From Actinomycetota bacterium (GTDB taxonomy: Bacteria; Actinomycetota; JAHEXW01; JAGVPG01), in the NCBI GenBank assembly GCA_020052375.1, contig JAGVPG010000010.1, positions 1-41,034 of the forward strand: a stretch of DNA of 41,034 nt. Reading direction: 5' to 3'. The notes beneath the pieces were generated by a model, which did no database searches, was not told the DNA's origin, and saw only the letters and a list, made by a program, of their open reading frames with translations. Both the position numbers and the translations under genes were made by a program. Positions 11,336-31,792 of the stretch are shown one piece after another. Each line of letters begins with the position of its first letter. The first letter of the stretch is position 1.

Positions 11336-12004
11336 TTATGCACAAACATATAAGAAACTTAATGATTGATTGTTATATCTACGGCTGTCAAATCCTGCGA
11401 GTATAACTACTCCAAATTGATTCTCAACCCCTGCTAATGGTTCCTGACCTTTAACGTCTATTCCAAAATAGATGGGATCAGCAAGACCTGGGCGTTTGAG
11501 AGTAAACGTTAAACTACAATTCACTTTGAATGAACCTTCTTTACTATTGCAGTAAACGACTAATTTCCCACTCTGTAAAGCATTATCAACAGAGATAGAA
11601 ATATTTTTCTCAGATGCCTTCTCTTTCGGAATACTACTAAACTTTAATAGTTCATCAAAATGTACTACTTGGATTGTTGCAAGATGCTCACCTTGAAACT
11701 CACTTAGTGGCTTTATGCTAAGAGGTCCAGCAACATTCTCTCTATCGCACGAAACATGAACTTGACCAGACTGATGGATAGAGATTTTCGGCACTTTGTT
11801 TGACCTATGTTGCTGTTTGAAGTTGAATGTTTGCTTAAGTTCTTCTTCCATGAAAAAACGGGTTCCATAAAAGAATTCACCTTTTACTCCATATGGGAAT
11901 ATGTATAAGCTTGCATCTCTTCCGCTAAATGCAAATTTACATAGTTTTTTCAGAATGTTTTTATGCTTAACAAATATCCGGGCTTCTCTAATGTTGCTTG
12001 ACAT
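11336..12004 (-). CDS. Uncharacterised protein of the TcmP island
   Basis: 222 residues; I do not recognise a family. There is no signal peptide or membrane segment. The N-terminal third is basic (ARIFVKHKNILKKLCKFAF) and holds GRDASLYIFPYGVKGEFFYG; the rest looks like beta-strand-rich sequence with alternating hydrophobic residues. The ATG at 12004 has only a weak ribosome site. The gene is AT-richer than the chromosome on either side, like the two genes upstream of it. It lies 80 bases after the radical-SAM-like gene on the same strand, so it is probably the third gene of that unit. A role with the other two is inferred only from position. Confidence 0.6.
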   Translation of the reverse strand: MSSNIREARIFVKHKNILKKLCKFAFSGRDASLYIFPYGVKGEFFYGTRFFMEEELKQTFNFKQQHRSNKVPKISIHQSGQVHVSCDRENVAGPLSIKPLSEFQGEHLATIQVVHFDELLKFSSIPKEKASEKNISISVDNALQSGKLVVYCNSKEGSFKVNCSLTFTLKRPGLADPIYFGIDVKGQEPLAGVENQFGVVILAGFDSRRYNNQSLSFLYVCA

Positions 12005-12084
12005 AATGATCCAATCATATAAATGAACTACTCTTTGATATCTCTTTAGGTGGGCTGATTCAGATTCTCGAGAGCCTTTTATTG

Positions 12085-12906
12085 TTAGCTGACTAAAGCT
12101 AACTGCGTGCTGTCGTTCTTGGGTTTTGTTCGACTAAGAATCGTTCCGTTCTTAATGTGATAATCTATGCCGTTTCTCTCGCAGAAACTTATCACTTTCT
12201 CTGCTTCTGACTCATAGAAGTCTGTGTATTCTCGATAGCTATTAGCATGCTTGCTGTAATTCCATTTGCCGAAAACGATCTTGTCGACAAAAGATATCTC
12301 ATCAAGTATCGCATCAATATTCTGCTCTTTTATATTAGGTGTCGGATATGGTTCCATGCTTACCCATGTTCTACACCCTGCTAGATGAAGCTTCTTTAGT
12401 GCCTCGATTCTTTCTTGTATCGGTGCTGCAAACGGCTCATAGTGTCTCCGAAATGACTCGGCGAGTGATACTATTGTGGACCCATATTCGTTATTTCGAT
12501 ATAGGTCGTGATCTGCGAGCTTAGCCGGGTATATTCCTTTTGAGATCAGAACCACTTTTACGTCATTCTGATTAAGACGAGCAAGGATTTGCAGACTTAG
12601 CTTTTCGATTTCTTCATTCTTGTACATGAATGGATCCGTACTGAAACACATAAACACATAGTCGATCTTATGCTTCAATCTCGGTATTTCCTTATCTAAG
12701 AGCTCCAGAGCATTGCTTACAATTCTCGGTTTAATCCAATCTTGGTATCCGCCAATTCGACCACACCGCTTTTTAAGCATCATGGCGTAGCATGGATATG
12801 TACAACCATGTGAACAACCCTCAACATGGTTTAATCCATAGTCAGCATATTCGACTTCGCTTTTGTACAGAAGTGTTTTCCGAAATAAAAGGTCTTGCTC
12901 ACTCAT
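12085..12906 (-). CDS. Radical-SAM-like three-Cys-motif protein, partner of TcmP
   Basis: 273 residues from the ATG at 12906, chosen because it overlaps the tcmP stop as ATGA; a GTG six codons earlier is possible. The N-terminal NHVEGCSHGCTYPCYAMM holds cysteines 31, 35 and 39 with spacing CX3CX3C, one residue longer than the CX3CX2C of classical radical SAM enzymes. The following sequence has the alternating strand/helix pattern of a TIM-barrel (YVFMCFSTDPFMY, VKVVLISKG, RTWVSMEPYPTPN, DKIVFGKWNYS). This resembles the spore photolyase-like and DUF5131 (phage Gp37/Gp68) proteins that are known to travel with TcmP. It probably binds an iron-sulfur cluster; the substrate is unknown. AT-rich codon use suggests acquisition by transfer. 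Confidence 0.72.
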   Translation of the reverse strand: MSEQDLLFRKTLLYKSEVEYADYGLNHVEGCSHGCTYPCYAMMLKKRCGRIGGYQDWIKPRIVSNALELLDKEIPRLKHKIDYVFMCFSTDPFMYKNEEIEKLSLQILARLNQNDVKVVLISKGIYPAKLADHDLYRNNEYGSTIVSLAESFRRHYEPFAAPIQERIEALKKLHLAGCRTWVSMEPYPTPNIKEQNIDAILDEISFVDKIVFGKWNYSKHANSYREYTDFYESEAEKVISFCERNGIDYHIKNGTILSRTKPKNDSTQLALVS

Positions 12907-13988
12907 CGCATTCTCTCTTTGCACAATTCATTAAACATGATTCGATCATTACCGCGTAGTCCTTTTCTTGTTTTACTGGTAATTCTAGTAATTCTTATGT
13001 TTGTTCCCTCCATCTTTTGCAGTGTTTTTCGTATTTCCCCCTCTGTATAGGGAATTTCATCAATAACCTCATCAATTAAATCTTGAAATGAGATTAACTT
13101 ACTGCAATATCTATCAACAAGATACTTCTTGATATCTTTTTCTTTGTATGATGAAAGATCTGACAAAGACATCTGATTACTTCTATTACCCAGATATGCT
13201 AAACGATTGTAGTTTAGCTCTGCGAAGACCGATTTCATAATAGCACACCCTAAAGAAGAATTAGTTAGATGAAAAAGATAGTAGAACGTCCTCTTTCTCC
13301 CAGGAAACTCTATAGGATATGGGTAAACATAGCGAACATTAGCGCATTCTTTGAGTTGATTCCTATATAGTGACACCAAACTTTTCTCCCTTTCAAATCC
13401 ATGAAGTTTATTCAACTCCTGCCAAGGGCATTTTCCAAAATAGTCGTCAAAAACCGCCGTTAGCTTTGGATCAGAAAGAAACTCATTAATCCTAGTAAAC
13501 ATGAAGTTCAGTACGATTTCGGTTTTATCTTGTTCCATAATCCGCCTAACTGTATCTATGCGCACTCCTTTGAAACCAAACGGATCAATAAGCATAAAGG
13601 TTGGGGATAAATTCCCAAGCTTGTCTAGCACAGTATTGATGACGCTATCAAAATCACCCTCTATGTACAGTGGTTTAGTTTCGCATTTAAGACTAGCTAA
13701 GATCTGTTGTATGTTCCTAAGATTTGAAGGATCACGATCAATAAACATAAAGGCTATTGATCGCCTTTTTGGTTTATGGTTCTGTTCAAAGTTTAAGACC
13801 GCTCGAACTGGTGATCCATAATGGATGTCTCTGTTCTCATCAGTATATGCTCCAATACCACTAAACCCATCAACATAATTCAGGTTGTTCCACTTTCCGA
13901 CTATCGTAAAGTACAAGTCTAAGTATTTAGACACGACTGAGTGTTTCATTTTTGTCTGTTCCTCATATTCCCATGTTTCAAAAACCAT
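12903..13988 (-). CDS. tcmP: Three-Cys-motif partner protein TcmP
   Basis: 361 residues. The N-terminal two thirds look like a Rossmann methyltransferase fold: YVDGFSGIGAY at residues 38-48 (SAM-binding-like loop), FMFIDRDPSN at about 80-89, and FMLIDPFGFKG at 131-141, where the DPFG resembles the catalytic motif of nucleic-acid methyltransferases. The C-terminal part (about 290-361) reads as a small winged-helix-like basic domain. These traits match the TcmP family, whose members sit beside a three-cysteine protein; the molecular activity is not established to my knowledge. The gene starts at ATG 13988 and is coupled to its partner by a 4-base overlap. It opens the AT-rich island. Confidence 0.82.
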   Translation of the reverse strand: MVFETWEYEEQTKMKHSVVSKYLDLYFTIVGKWNNLNYVDGFSGIGAYTDENRDIHYGSPVRAVLNFEQNHKPKRRSIAFMFIDRDPSNLRNIQQILASLKCETKPLYIEGDFDSVINTVLDKLGNLSPTFMLIDPFGFKGVRIDTVRRIMEQDKTEIVLNFMFTRINEFLSDPKLTAVFDDYFGKCPWQELNKLHGFEREKSLVSLYRNQLKECANVRYVYPYPIEFPGRKRTFYYLFHLTNSSLGCAIMKSVFAELNYNRLAYLGNRSNQMSLSDLSSYKEKDIKKYLVDRYCSKLISFQDLIDEVIDEIPYTEGEIRKTLQKMEGTNIRITRITSKTRKGLRGNDRIMFNELCKERMR

Positions 13989-14106: not shown

Positions 14107-14311
14107 AGGCAAGCGGGTATACTATTGAGGCGACATTGTGAGCTGACCTGTGGATTTGCGAGGTATTTCCCAGGTCGTGAGGACTGTTTGAGCGACGTAT
14201 TCTATGTTTGTCTAAATTAATCCCGAGCGAGTTCCGCAGCGACCTGCGAAAATAGCGCAGAAAATACCAGGACAGTGAACTAGTCGCTCGAGATGGTATA
14301 CCCGCTTGCCT
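14107..14311. repeat. 205-bp palindromic element (MITE-like or structured RNA)
   Basis: The element fills most of the 329-base gap between tcmP and the next gene. It is closed by a perfect 16-bp inverted repeat, AGGCAAGCGGGTATAC at 14107-14122 and its complement at 14296-14311. Further inward the arms keep pairing with interruptions: GAGGCGAC with GTCGCTC, GGTATTT with AAATACC, and CAGGTCG with CGACCTG. The result is one long rod with internal loops on either strand. There is no open frame of note in it. It could be a non-autonomous transposable element, a large bidirectional terminator or a 6S-like RNA. It sits at the edge of the AT-rich island. Confidence 0.7.
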
Positions 14312-31512: not shown

Positions 31513-31792
31513 GCGGTCGTGCCCCATGATCGACCACCGGCTCAAGATGTGCTTCTCAAAGATGAAGGACTCCCTCCAAGCTGCTCCGCGGCACATGGAA
31601 GGTCTTGTTTACCGCTGCTTCCTCCCGGACCTGACGGGGTTCACAAATTTCCATTGCGCGGGACCTGAAGATCGACACCCTTCGCCAAAGAGGCGAACCA
31701 CCAAACCGGAAGGCCTCAACATGGGAATTCAGCCTCGCTGTAGCGGATTGCGAGTTAAAGGGCACCGCTGGTTCCCCGCCTAGCACGACCAC
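31513..31792 (-). ncRNA. ffs: Signal recognition particle RNA, large Gram-positive type (ffs/scRNA)
   Basis: RNA scaffold of the SRP, which binds Ffh and targets nascent membrane proteins. The diagnostic domain IV tip GTCAGGTCCGGGAGGAAGCA is at 31635-31616 on the minus strand. The 5' end reads GGTCGTGCTAGGCGGGG and, further on, AGCGGTGCCCT and CTCGCAATCCGC, the Alu-domain sequence of long bacterial SRP RNAs. The 3' end GGGGCACGACC pairs with the 5' end (GGTCGTGC with GCACGACC), which sets the ends at about 31790 and 31515. The length, about 280 nt, matches the Bacillus-type rather than the short 4.5S type. The ends are accurate to a few bases. Confidence 0.95.

What the first reader, a model, noticed from the sequence alone, without database searches (positions are those of the whole stretch)
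11336..13988. AT-rich three-gene island: TcmP, three-Cys radical-SAM-like protein and an unknown protein
Seen: clear base-composition contrast, three same-strand genes, 4-base overlap between the first two, palindromic element at one edge. Known: TcmP occurs next to three-Cys proteins, often in mobile regions, with no established function that I know of. Inference: a mobile system, possibly defence or nucleic-acid modification, here with a third component.
Basis: partly seen in the sequence, partly recalled or inferred. Interest (0 to 1): 0.62.

Follow-up and report, generated by a model that had tools for sequence, protein, structure and literature searches.

The report
TcmP paired with radical-SAM repair-like enzyme
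A foreign-looking stretch of DNA carries a widespread two-enzyme pair (a base-methyltransferase-like protein plus a radical enzyme shaped like a DNA-repair lyase) that probably chemically alters nucleic acid and often sits beside bacterial anti-virus genes; the third gene next to it looks like a bystander.

Summary
In detail: an AT-rich (37.7% GC against about 50%) three-gene, same-strand stretch with an ATGA overlap between the first two genes. The first gene is TcmP. The second is not the usual TcmP partner (DUF5131, C-x6-C-x2-C): it is a radical-SAM protein whose model fits spore photoproduct lyase best (Z 17.8) and which carries an unusual C-x3-C-x3-C motif. TcmP models as an RlmJ-like base methyltransferase (Z 17.6). 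The pair is a widespread module: a TcmP gene lies directly upstream of this radical-SAM family in 41 of 44 loci. In one phylum, 35 of 35 assessable TcmP genomes have a three-Cys partner: 24 DUF5131-type, 10 this family, 1 a canonical relative. Radical-SAM proteins 82% alike can carry TcmPs only 17% alike, so TcmP looks like an exchangeable subunit under a constant radical enzyme. Neighbours are often restriction-modification genes. The third gene was found nowhere else, against a three-part cassette. Best reading: a two-component nucleic-acid base-modifying module, a variant of PADLOC's untested candidates PDC-M30/M41; the chemistry is inferred. The edge palindrome is a separate genomic repeat.

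The parts
12903..13988 (-). TcmP, 361 aa: RlmJ-like Rossmann methyltransferase fold plus C-terminal winged-helix-like region
   Evidence: TIGR04474 180 bits, cut-off 53; AlphaFold2 pLDDT 86.6; RlmJ 6qdx Z 17.6, 208 residues, 2.8 A; GMT-wHTH PF22560 20.4 bits, below its cut-off of 27
12085..12906 (-). radical-SAM protein, 273 aa from the ATG (279 aa from an alternative GTG at 12924), spore-photoproduct-lyase-like fold, TcmP partner
   Evidence: PF04055 36.8 bits, cut-off 29.5; AlphaFold2 pLDDT 85.6; SPL 4fhc Z 17.8, 240 residues, 3.4 A
12903..12906 (-). ATGA overlap of tcmP stop and radical-SAM start
   Evidence: sequence
12790..12816 (-). C37-x3-C41-x3-C45 motif (numbered from the GTG)
   Evidence: invariant in alignments A1 (13 rows) and A5 (23 rows)
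13944..13946 (-). TcmP Lys15, likely equivalent of the motif X lysine of RlmJ (equivalence inferred)
   Evidence: K in 60 of 60 TcmP rows
13851..13871 (-). TcmP motif I, DGFSGIG (presumed SAM-binding loop)
13575..13586 (-). TcmP motif IV, DPFG (RlmJ has DPPY)
   Evidence: PMC3814359 passages
13008..13175 (-). TcmP C-terminal winged-helix-like region (aa 272-327)
   Evidence: PF22560 E 7e-4, sub-threshold; 7 of 27 TcmPs of A4 match it at E up to 1
11336..12004 (-). orphan 222-aa protein, probably a passenger and not part of the module
   Evidence: no homologue or family found
14107..14311 (.). 205-base palindromic genomic repeat at the island's edge, not specific to it

Best explanation
The island carries a horizontally acquired two-gene module that most likely modifies bases in DNA or RNA. 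TcmP, an RlmJ-like methyltransferase, recognises the target (in many copies with a C-terminal winged-helix-like region) and probably methylates or flips out a base. The second protein, a spore-photoproduct-lyase-like radical-SAM enzyme, then does radical chemistry on that base. The radical enzyme is the constant subunit and TcmP the exchangeable, specificity-like one. The module serves phage-host conflict, either as defence or as protection of prophage DNA. Shown here: gene pairing, folds by model, conserved motif residues, subunit exchange, accessory distribution, frequent restriction-modification neighbours. Inferred: substrate, order of steps, product, biological purpose. The third gene is a passenger.
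For: TcmP directly upstream of the radical-SAM gene in 41 of 44 loci. All 27 TcmPs of A4 match TIGR04474. 35 of 35 assessable TcmP genomes of one phylum have a three-Cys partner, 2 more being cut at contig ends. Folds: RlmJ on top for TcmP (Z 17.6, 208 residues, 2.8 A); six SPL entries on top for the radical-SAM protein (Z 17.6-17.8, next family 14.3). Lys15 in 60 of 60 TcmPs; motif IV Asp in 27 of 27 rows of A4. Subunit exchange: over 34 loci mean identity 58% (radical SAM) against 23% (TcmP); L073/L054 82% against 17%; the partner label changes 6-7 times on the TcmP tree, at least 4 forced by well-supported branches. Among 75 downstream neighbours: type III methyltransferase 7, ResIII 7, N6_Mtase 4, Eco57I 4, GmrSD 2, HindIII 2, AIPR 2, DUF1156 2.
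Against: No biochemical or genetic data. The neighbour counts have no background control. TcmP motif IV lacks the second proline of classical amino-methyltransferases and varies (for example DPAG, DAYT), so some copies may not methylate. Other acceptors (protein, small molecule) are not excluded by fold. Five of the 15 genomes with the radical-SAM family have no TcmP match (G059 and G173 hold broken copies; G275 and G304 are incomplete; G327 looks a true solo).
Confidence: 0.5

Rival explanations
1. DNA repair or counter-defence: like spore photoproduct lyase, the radical-SAM enzyme reverses a base lesion or a defence-made adduct, and TcmP is only the recognition and base-flipping subunit.
For: SPL is the closest solved fold; viral-contig locations; single neighbours that may remove ADP-ribose-type marks (NADAR in L034, macro domain in L044; ADP_ribosyl_GH in one neighbour).
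Against: TcmP keeps Lys15 in 60 of 60 rows and the motif IV Asp in 27 of 27, more than a pure recognition subunit needs; the C-x3-C-x3-C motif departs from the canonical spacing.
Confidence: 0.2
2. The radical-SAM enzyme modifies TcmP itself (protein radical or residue modification), which switches TcmP on.
For: Strict adjacency; PFL-activating enzyme is among the next structural neighbours, Z 14.3, 206 residues, 3.0 A.
Against: Radical-SAM proteins 70-82% alike serve TcmPs only 15-21% identical, hard to square with a conserved modification site; SPL fits better by about 3.5 Z.
Confidence: 0.08
3. Toxin-antitoxin-like pair: TcmP modifies host nucleic acid harmfully and the radical-SAM enzyme undoes it.
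For: Two-gene operon with short overlaps, mobile distribution, tandem tcmP copies in L055, L068, L069, L070.
Against: The near-constant gene would be the antitoxin and the variable one the toxin, with no matching diversification; an apparently solo radical-SAM copy in G327.
Confidence: 0.1
4. Ordinary accessory rRNA or tRNA modification pair with no conflict role.
For: TcmP's best solved fold is that of a 23S rRNA methyltransferase.
Against: Patchy presence (37 of 396 genomes), viral-contig copies, restriction-modification neighbours, fast subunit exchange.
Confidence: 0.09
5. Three-component system including the 222-aa protein.
For: Same strand, same low GC, 80-base gap.
Against: No homologue at any other TcmP locus or genome searched.
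Confidence: 0.03

Closest known systems
PDC-M30 / PDC-M41 (PADLOC-DB 2.0 phage defence candidates; TcmP + DUF5131)
   Same: TcmP subunit (PDC-M30A 82 bits) beside a three-Cys protein; neighbours of defence type
   Different: Partner is not DUF5131: 19-21 bits to the B models where two DUF5131 partners score 382-405; Cys spacing x3/x3 instead of x6/x2; here the partner lies directly downstream of TcmP (41 of 44 loci), whereas DUF5131 genes lie on either side and strand
Spore photoproduct lyase
   Same: Best solved fold for the radical-SAM protein (Z 17.8, 240 residues, 3.4 A)
   Different: 13% identity; C-x3-C-x3-C; paired with a methyltransferase-like protein
RlmJ (23S rRNA m6A2030 methyltransferase)
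   Same: Best solved fold for TcmP (Z 17.6, 208 residues, 2.8 A); a lysine and the motif IV Asp kept
   Different: Motif IV DPFG, not DPPY (PMC3814359 passages); extra C-terminal winged-helix-like region; accessory distribution
PA0069 / Rv2578c / rSAM mobile pair B radical-SAM families
   Same: Closest NCBIfam models by sequence (55.8, 35.4 and 42.9 bits)
   Different: Far below their cut-offs (360, 430, 410); 16 distant relatives examined have C-x3-C-x2-C; none of 16 loci of such relatives had TcmP nearby
Trm5-TYW1 in wybutosine synthesis (recalled, no call)
   Same: Methyltransferase followed by a radical-SAM enzyme acting on the methylated base: a precedent for the proposed chemistry
   Different: Different subunits; acts on tRNA

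Membership tests
TcmP (TIGR04474) | score over curated cut-off (53 bits) | tested here: met
   180 bits
TcmP (TIGR04474) | adjacent three-Cys protein | tested here: met
   radical-SAM gene overlapping its 3' end
DUF5131 / PDC-M30B / PDC-M41B | Pfam gathering score 28.9; scores like true members | tested here: not met
   21.9 bits; 19-21 bits against 382-405 for two DUF5131 partners
DUF5131 / PDC-M30B / PDC-M41B | C-x6-C-x2-C motif (WNPxTGC...C..CYA) as seen in the 24 partners here | tested here: not met
   C-x3-C-x3-C
Radical SAM superfamily (PF04055) | score over gathering cut-off (29.5) | tested here: met
   36.8 bits; radical-SAM structures on top
Radical SAM superfamily (PF04055) | canonical C-x3-C-x2-C motif | tested here: not met
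   C-x3-C-x3-C in the window and in 40 of 40 rows of its family in the tree set
Radical SAM superfamily (PF04055) | [4Fe-4S] cluster and SAM cleavage | not testable with these tools
   needs purified protein
Spore photoproduct lyase | fold | tested here: met
   Z 17.8, 240 residues, 3.4 A, well above the next family
Spore photoproduct lyase | catalytic Cys; spore photoproduct as substrate | not tested
   residue position recalled and from entry titles only; no alignment of that residue made
PA0069 family (NF033668) | score over cut-off 360 | tested here: not met
   55.8 bits
RlmJ | fold | tested here: met
   Z 17.6, 208 residues, 2.8 A
RlmJ | motif IV DPP[YF] | tested here: not met
   DPFG in the window; no DPP in the 27 rows of A4
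Phage defence system | measured protection from phage | not testable with these tools
   no experiment; PMC10855318 (passages) calls the PDC systems not experimentally validated

The most novel reading that the evidence does not exclude
A modular radical base-modification system, a further kind of modification beside classical restriction-modification: swappable RlmJ-like TcmP subunits choose and methylate a nucleotide, and a constant SPL-like radical-SAM enzyme with a C-x3-C-x3-C cluster motif rebuilds that methylated base into a hypermodified one. DUF5131 is the alternative radical subunit of the same architecture, so TcmP is a common platform for at least two radical enzymes.
Probability: 0.3. 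Interest if true: 0.82.

Novelty: new variant of a known kind. Interest (0 to 1): 0.58.

Why it matters
TcmP is a named protein of unknown function in accessory genomes. This work links it to a base-methyltransferase fold and its partner to a DNA-acting radical enzyme fold, and shows that the partner comes in alternative kinds while TcmP is exchanged under a near-constant radical enzyme. That turns an orphan gene pair into a concrete, testable proposal (nucleoside mass spectrometry) and would, if right, add radical chemistry to the ways by which bacteria and phages mark nucleic acid.

Tried and rejected
Third gene as component: rejected. The one weak hit (G135, L080, 18.8 bits) lies in a frame with two stops, across a stretch that codes for other proteins.

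DUF5131 as identity of the second gene: rejected by scores and motif.

ADP-ribose link: single ADP-ribose-related neighbours (L034 NADAR, L044 macro, one ADP_ribosyl_GH) were seen, too few to build on.

Palindromic element as mobility boundary: it is a genome-wide repeat of this organism, found in 1 of 246 genomes, the window's own, without an Rfam match; no link to the pair was found. Exact ends of an insertion could not be shown: G002 keeps galT-glycosyltransferase-HAD and glycerate kinase-TIGR00725 in the same order, but between them holds other genes (CrcB and DUF190 by eye) and lacks the window's coiled-coil gene too. In G001 the two flanks lie on different contigs, so it says nothing.

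Sequence-only search of solved structures: RlmJ appeared only at E 1.3 for TcmP, and nothing for the radical-SAM profile; the fold comparisons gave the answer. The RlmJ likeness was first recalled, then tested. A motif IV likeness to Trm1 (DPFG) is recalled and untested; no paper with DPFG was in the listing.

Literature: 'three-Cys-motif partner' is in 3 papers; in the two I looked into, the passages are gene-table entries. DUF5131: 0 papers. CX3CX3C with radical SAM: 2 papers, one with a passage on NifB that elsewhere in the same section gives CX3CX2C, one on peptide cysteines. No description of this pair was found; most subscription papers and all preprints are missing from that library.

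Rows dropped: L052 and L059 (near-duplicates), TcmP pieces under 200 aa, and loci L131, L141, L146, L147, L150 and L152-L156 were left out of the tree. In one search, 75 downstream genes were given, most of those listed; doubtful frames were left out by eye and one macro-domain frame was added. Broken copies L047 and L048 were not among the 44 loci; with them the count is 41 of 46. L051/L052 and L059/L060 are near-duplicates. In one search L048 bears the label CX3CX2C_out but prints as C-x3-C-x3-C. The 29 viral loci were found with patterns that include HGCxYPCY, so the motif count is unbiased only for the 15 other loci (15 of 15). In one search the motif IV list for SPL-partnered rows prints only the 12 commonest strings (35 of 42 rows).

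Full report
Observation. The three genes are present as described, on the minus strand, in a stretch of 37.7% GC; outside it 2653-base windows average 50.4% with a minimum of 45.9%. Third-position GC is 0.28-0.42 in the three genes and 0.51-0.62 in six flanking ones. TcmP (12903-13988) scores 180 bits to TIGR04474, cut-off 53. The radical-SAM gene overlaps it by ATGA if it starts at the ATG ending at 12906.

What the second gene is. It passes the Pfam radical-SAM cut-off (36.8 against 29.5) and fails DUF5131 (21.9 against 28.9). NCBIfam's nearest models are far below cut-off. The PADLOC B models for TcmP partners give it 19-21 bits, while two DUF5131 partners from other loci score 382-405. A modelled structure (23-row alignment, pLDDT 85.6) fits spore photoproduct lyase first: the six top Foldseek hits and Z 17.6-17.8 over 238-245 residues at 3.3-4.0 A, the next family at 14.3.

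Its cysteine motif is C-x3-C-x3-C (GCxHGCxYPCYA), invariant in 13- and 23-row alignments. Because the viral scan used a pattern containing the motif, the fair count is the 15 loci found otherwise, 15 of 15. Sixteen more distant relatives have C-x3-C-x2-C. No TcmP was found at the 16 loci of such relatives checked, though 14 of these had only about 1.5 kb of flank; one canonical relative, L151, does lie beside TcmP.

What TcmP is. The model (27-row alignment, pLDDT 86.6) matches RlmJ, the 23S rRNA m6A2030 methyltransferase: Z 17.6, 208 residues, 2.8 A, with RlmJ or its DUF519 relative in 10 of the top 11 rows. RlmJ uses a motif X lysine and motif IV DPPY (PMC3814359, passages). TcmP keeps a lysine (Lys15) in 60 of 60 rows and the motif IV Asp-Pro in 27 of 27 rows of A4, but has strings such as DPFG and DPYG in place of DPPY. 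Methylation of a base is therefore plausible, not shown.

The pair is a module. The radical-SAM family (E <= 1e-25) is in 15 of 396 genomes of the phylum, in an Omnitrophota and a Cloacimonadota contig, a fecal phage record and 29 viral contigs. A TcmP gene lies directly upstream in 41 of 44 loci; all 27 TcmPs of alignment A4 match TIGR04474. Conversely TcmP is in 37 of 396 genomes. Reading their surroundings, 24 have a DUF5131-type partner (C-x6-C-x2-C), 10 the present family, 1 a canonical C-x3-C-x2-C relative, and 2 are cut at contig ends. No homologue of the third gene was found at the 28 loci read.

Exceptions: five of the 15 genomes with the radical-SAM family lack a TcmP match. G059 and G173 hold broken copies, G275 and G304 are incomplete (89% and 79%), and G327 appears to be a genuine solo copy.

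Subunit exchange. Over 34 loci, mean pairwise identity is 58% for the radical-SAM protein and 23% for TcmP; L073 and L054 share 82% and 17%. On a tree of 60 TcmPs the partner label (DUF5131 or the SPL-like family) changes 6-7 times, at least 4 forced by well-supported branches, against about 15 in shuffles. So labels cluster, yet partners have been exchanged repeatedly. Four viral loci carry a long and a short tcmP in tandem. This resembles a constant catalytic subunit with changeable specificity subunits; the comparison is inference.

Setting. A small helix-turn-helix-like gene (by eye) lies just upstream of TcmP in 13 loci. Among 75 downstream neighbours, type III methyltransferase (7), ResIII (7), N6_Mtase (4), Eco57I (4), GmrSD (2), HindIII (2), AIPR (2) and DUF1156 (2) stand out. 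There is no background control. The island is absent from the two same-order genomes held; in G002 the flanking genes keep their order without it, though the gap holds other genes.

Mechanism proposed. TcmP binds and flips a base, probably methylating it; the SPL-like enzyme generates a radical at that base or its methyl group. A recalled precedent for a methyltransferase followed by a radical-SAM enzyme is Trm5-TYW1. Steps shown: pairing, folds by model, conserved residues, exchange. Steps inferred: substrate, order, product, purpose. Rivals are lesion reversal, activation of TcmP, toxin-antitoxin and plain RNA modification.

Known or new. TcmP with DUF5131 is catalogued as candidate defence PDC-M30/M41 in PADLOC; PMC10855318 (passages) calls such candidates not experimentally validated. 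I found no description of the present pairing in the paper searches made. I rate it a new variant of a known but untested kind.

Noticed in passing
14107-14311: A 205-base hairpin repeat (z -9.5) with 7 other partial or full copies in this genome; in five copies the outer arms differ in sequence but stay complementary. It has no Rfam match and was found in 1 of 246 genomes, the window's own. It could be a lineage-private structured RNA or a miniature mobile element.
   Followed up: partly
L055:3949-5970, L068:3932-5967, L069:3938-5975, L070:3932-5967: Two tcmP genes, one long and one short, in tandem before one radical-SAM gene, followed by type III restriction-modification genes.
   Followed up: partly
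L151:3821-5648: TcmP beside a radical-SAM-like protein with the canonical C-x3-C-x2-C motif (CKHDCKYC): a possible third partner type.
   Followed up: no
L041:7125-7922: An apparently solo copy of the radical-SAM family without TcmP, upstream of an AAA_21 ATPase gene.
   Followed up: no
L152:3611-6657: A tcmP gene next to genes that read by eye as a C5-cytosine methyltransferase and a Vsr-like endonuclease.
   Followed up: no
31517-31788: Bacterial large signal recognition particle RNA, Rfam RF01854, 180.9 bits.
   Followed up: no
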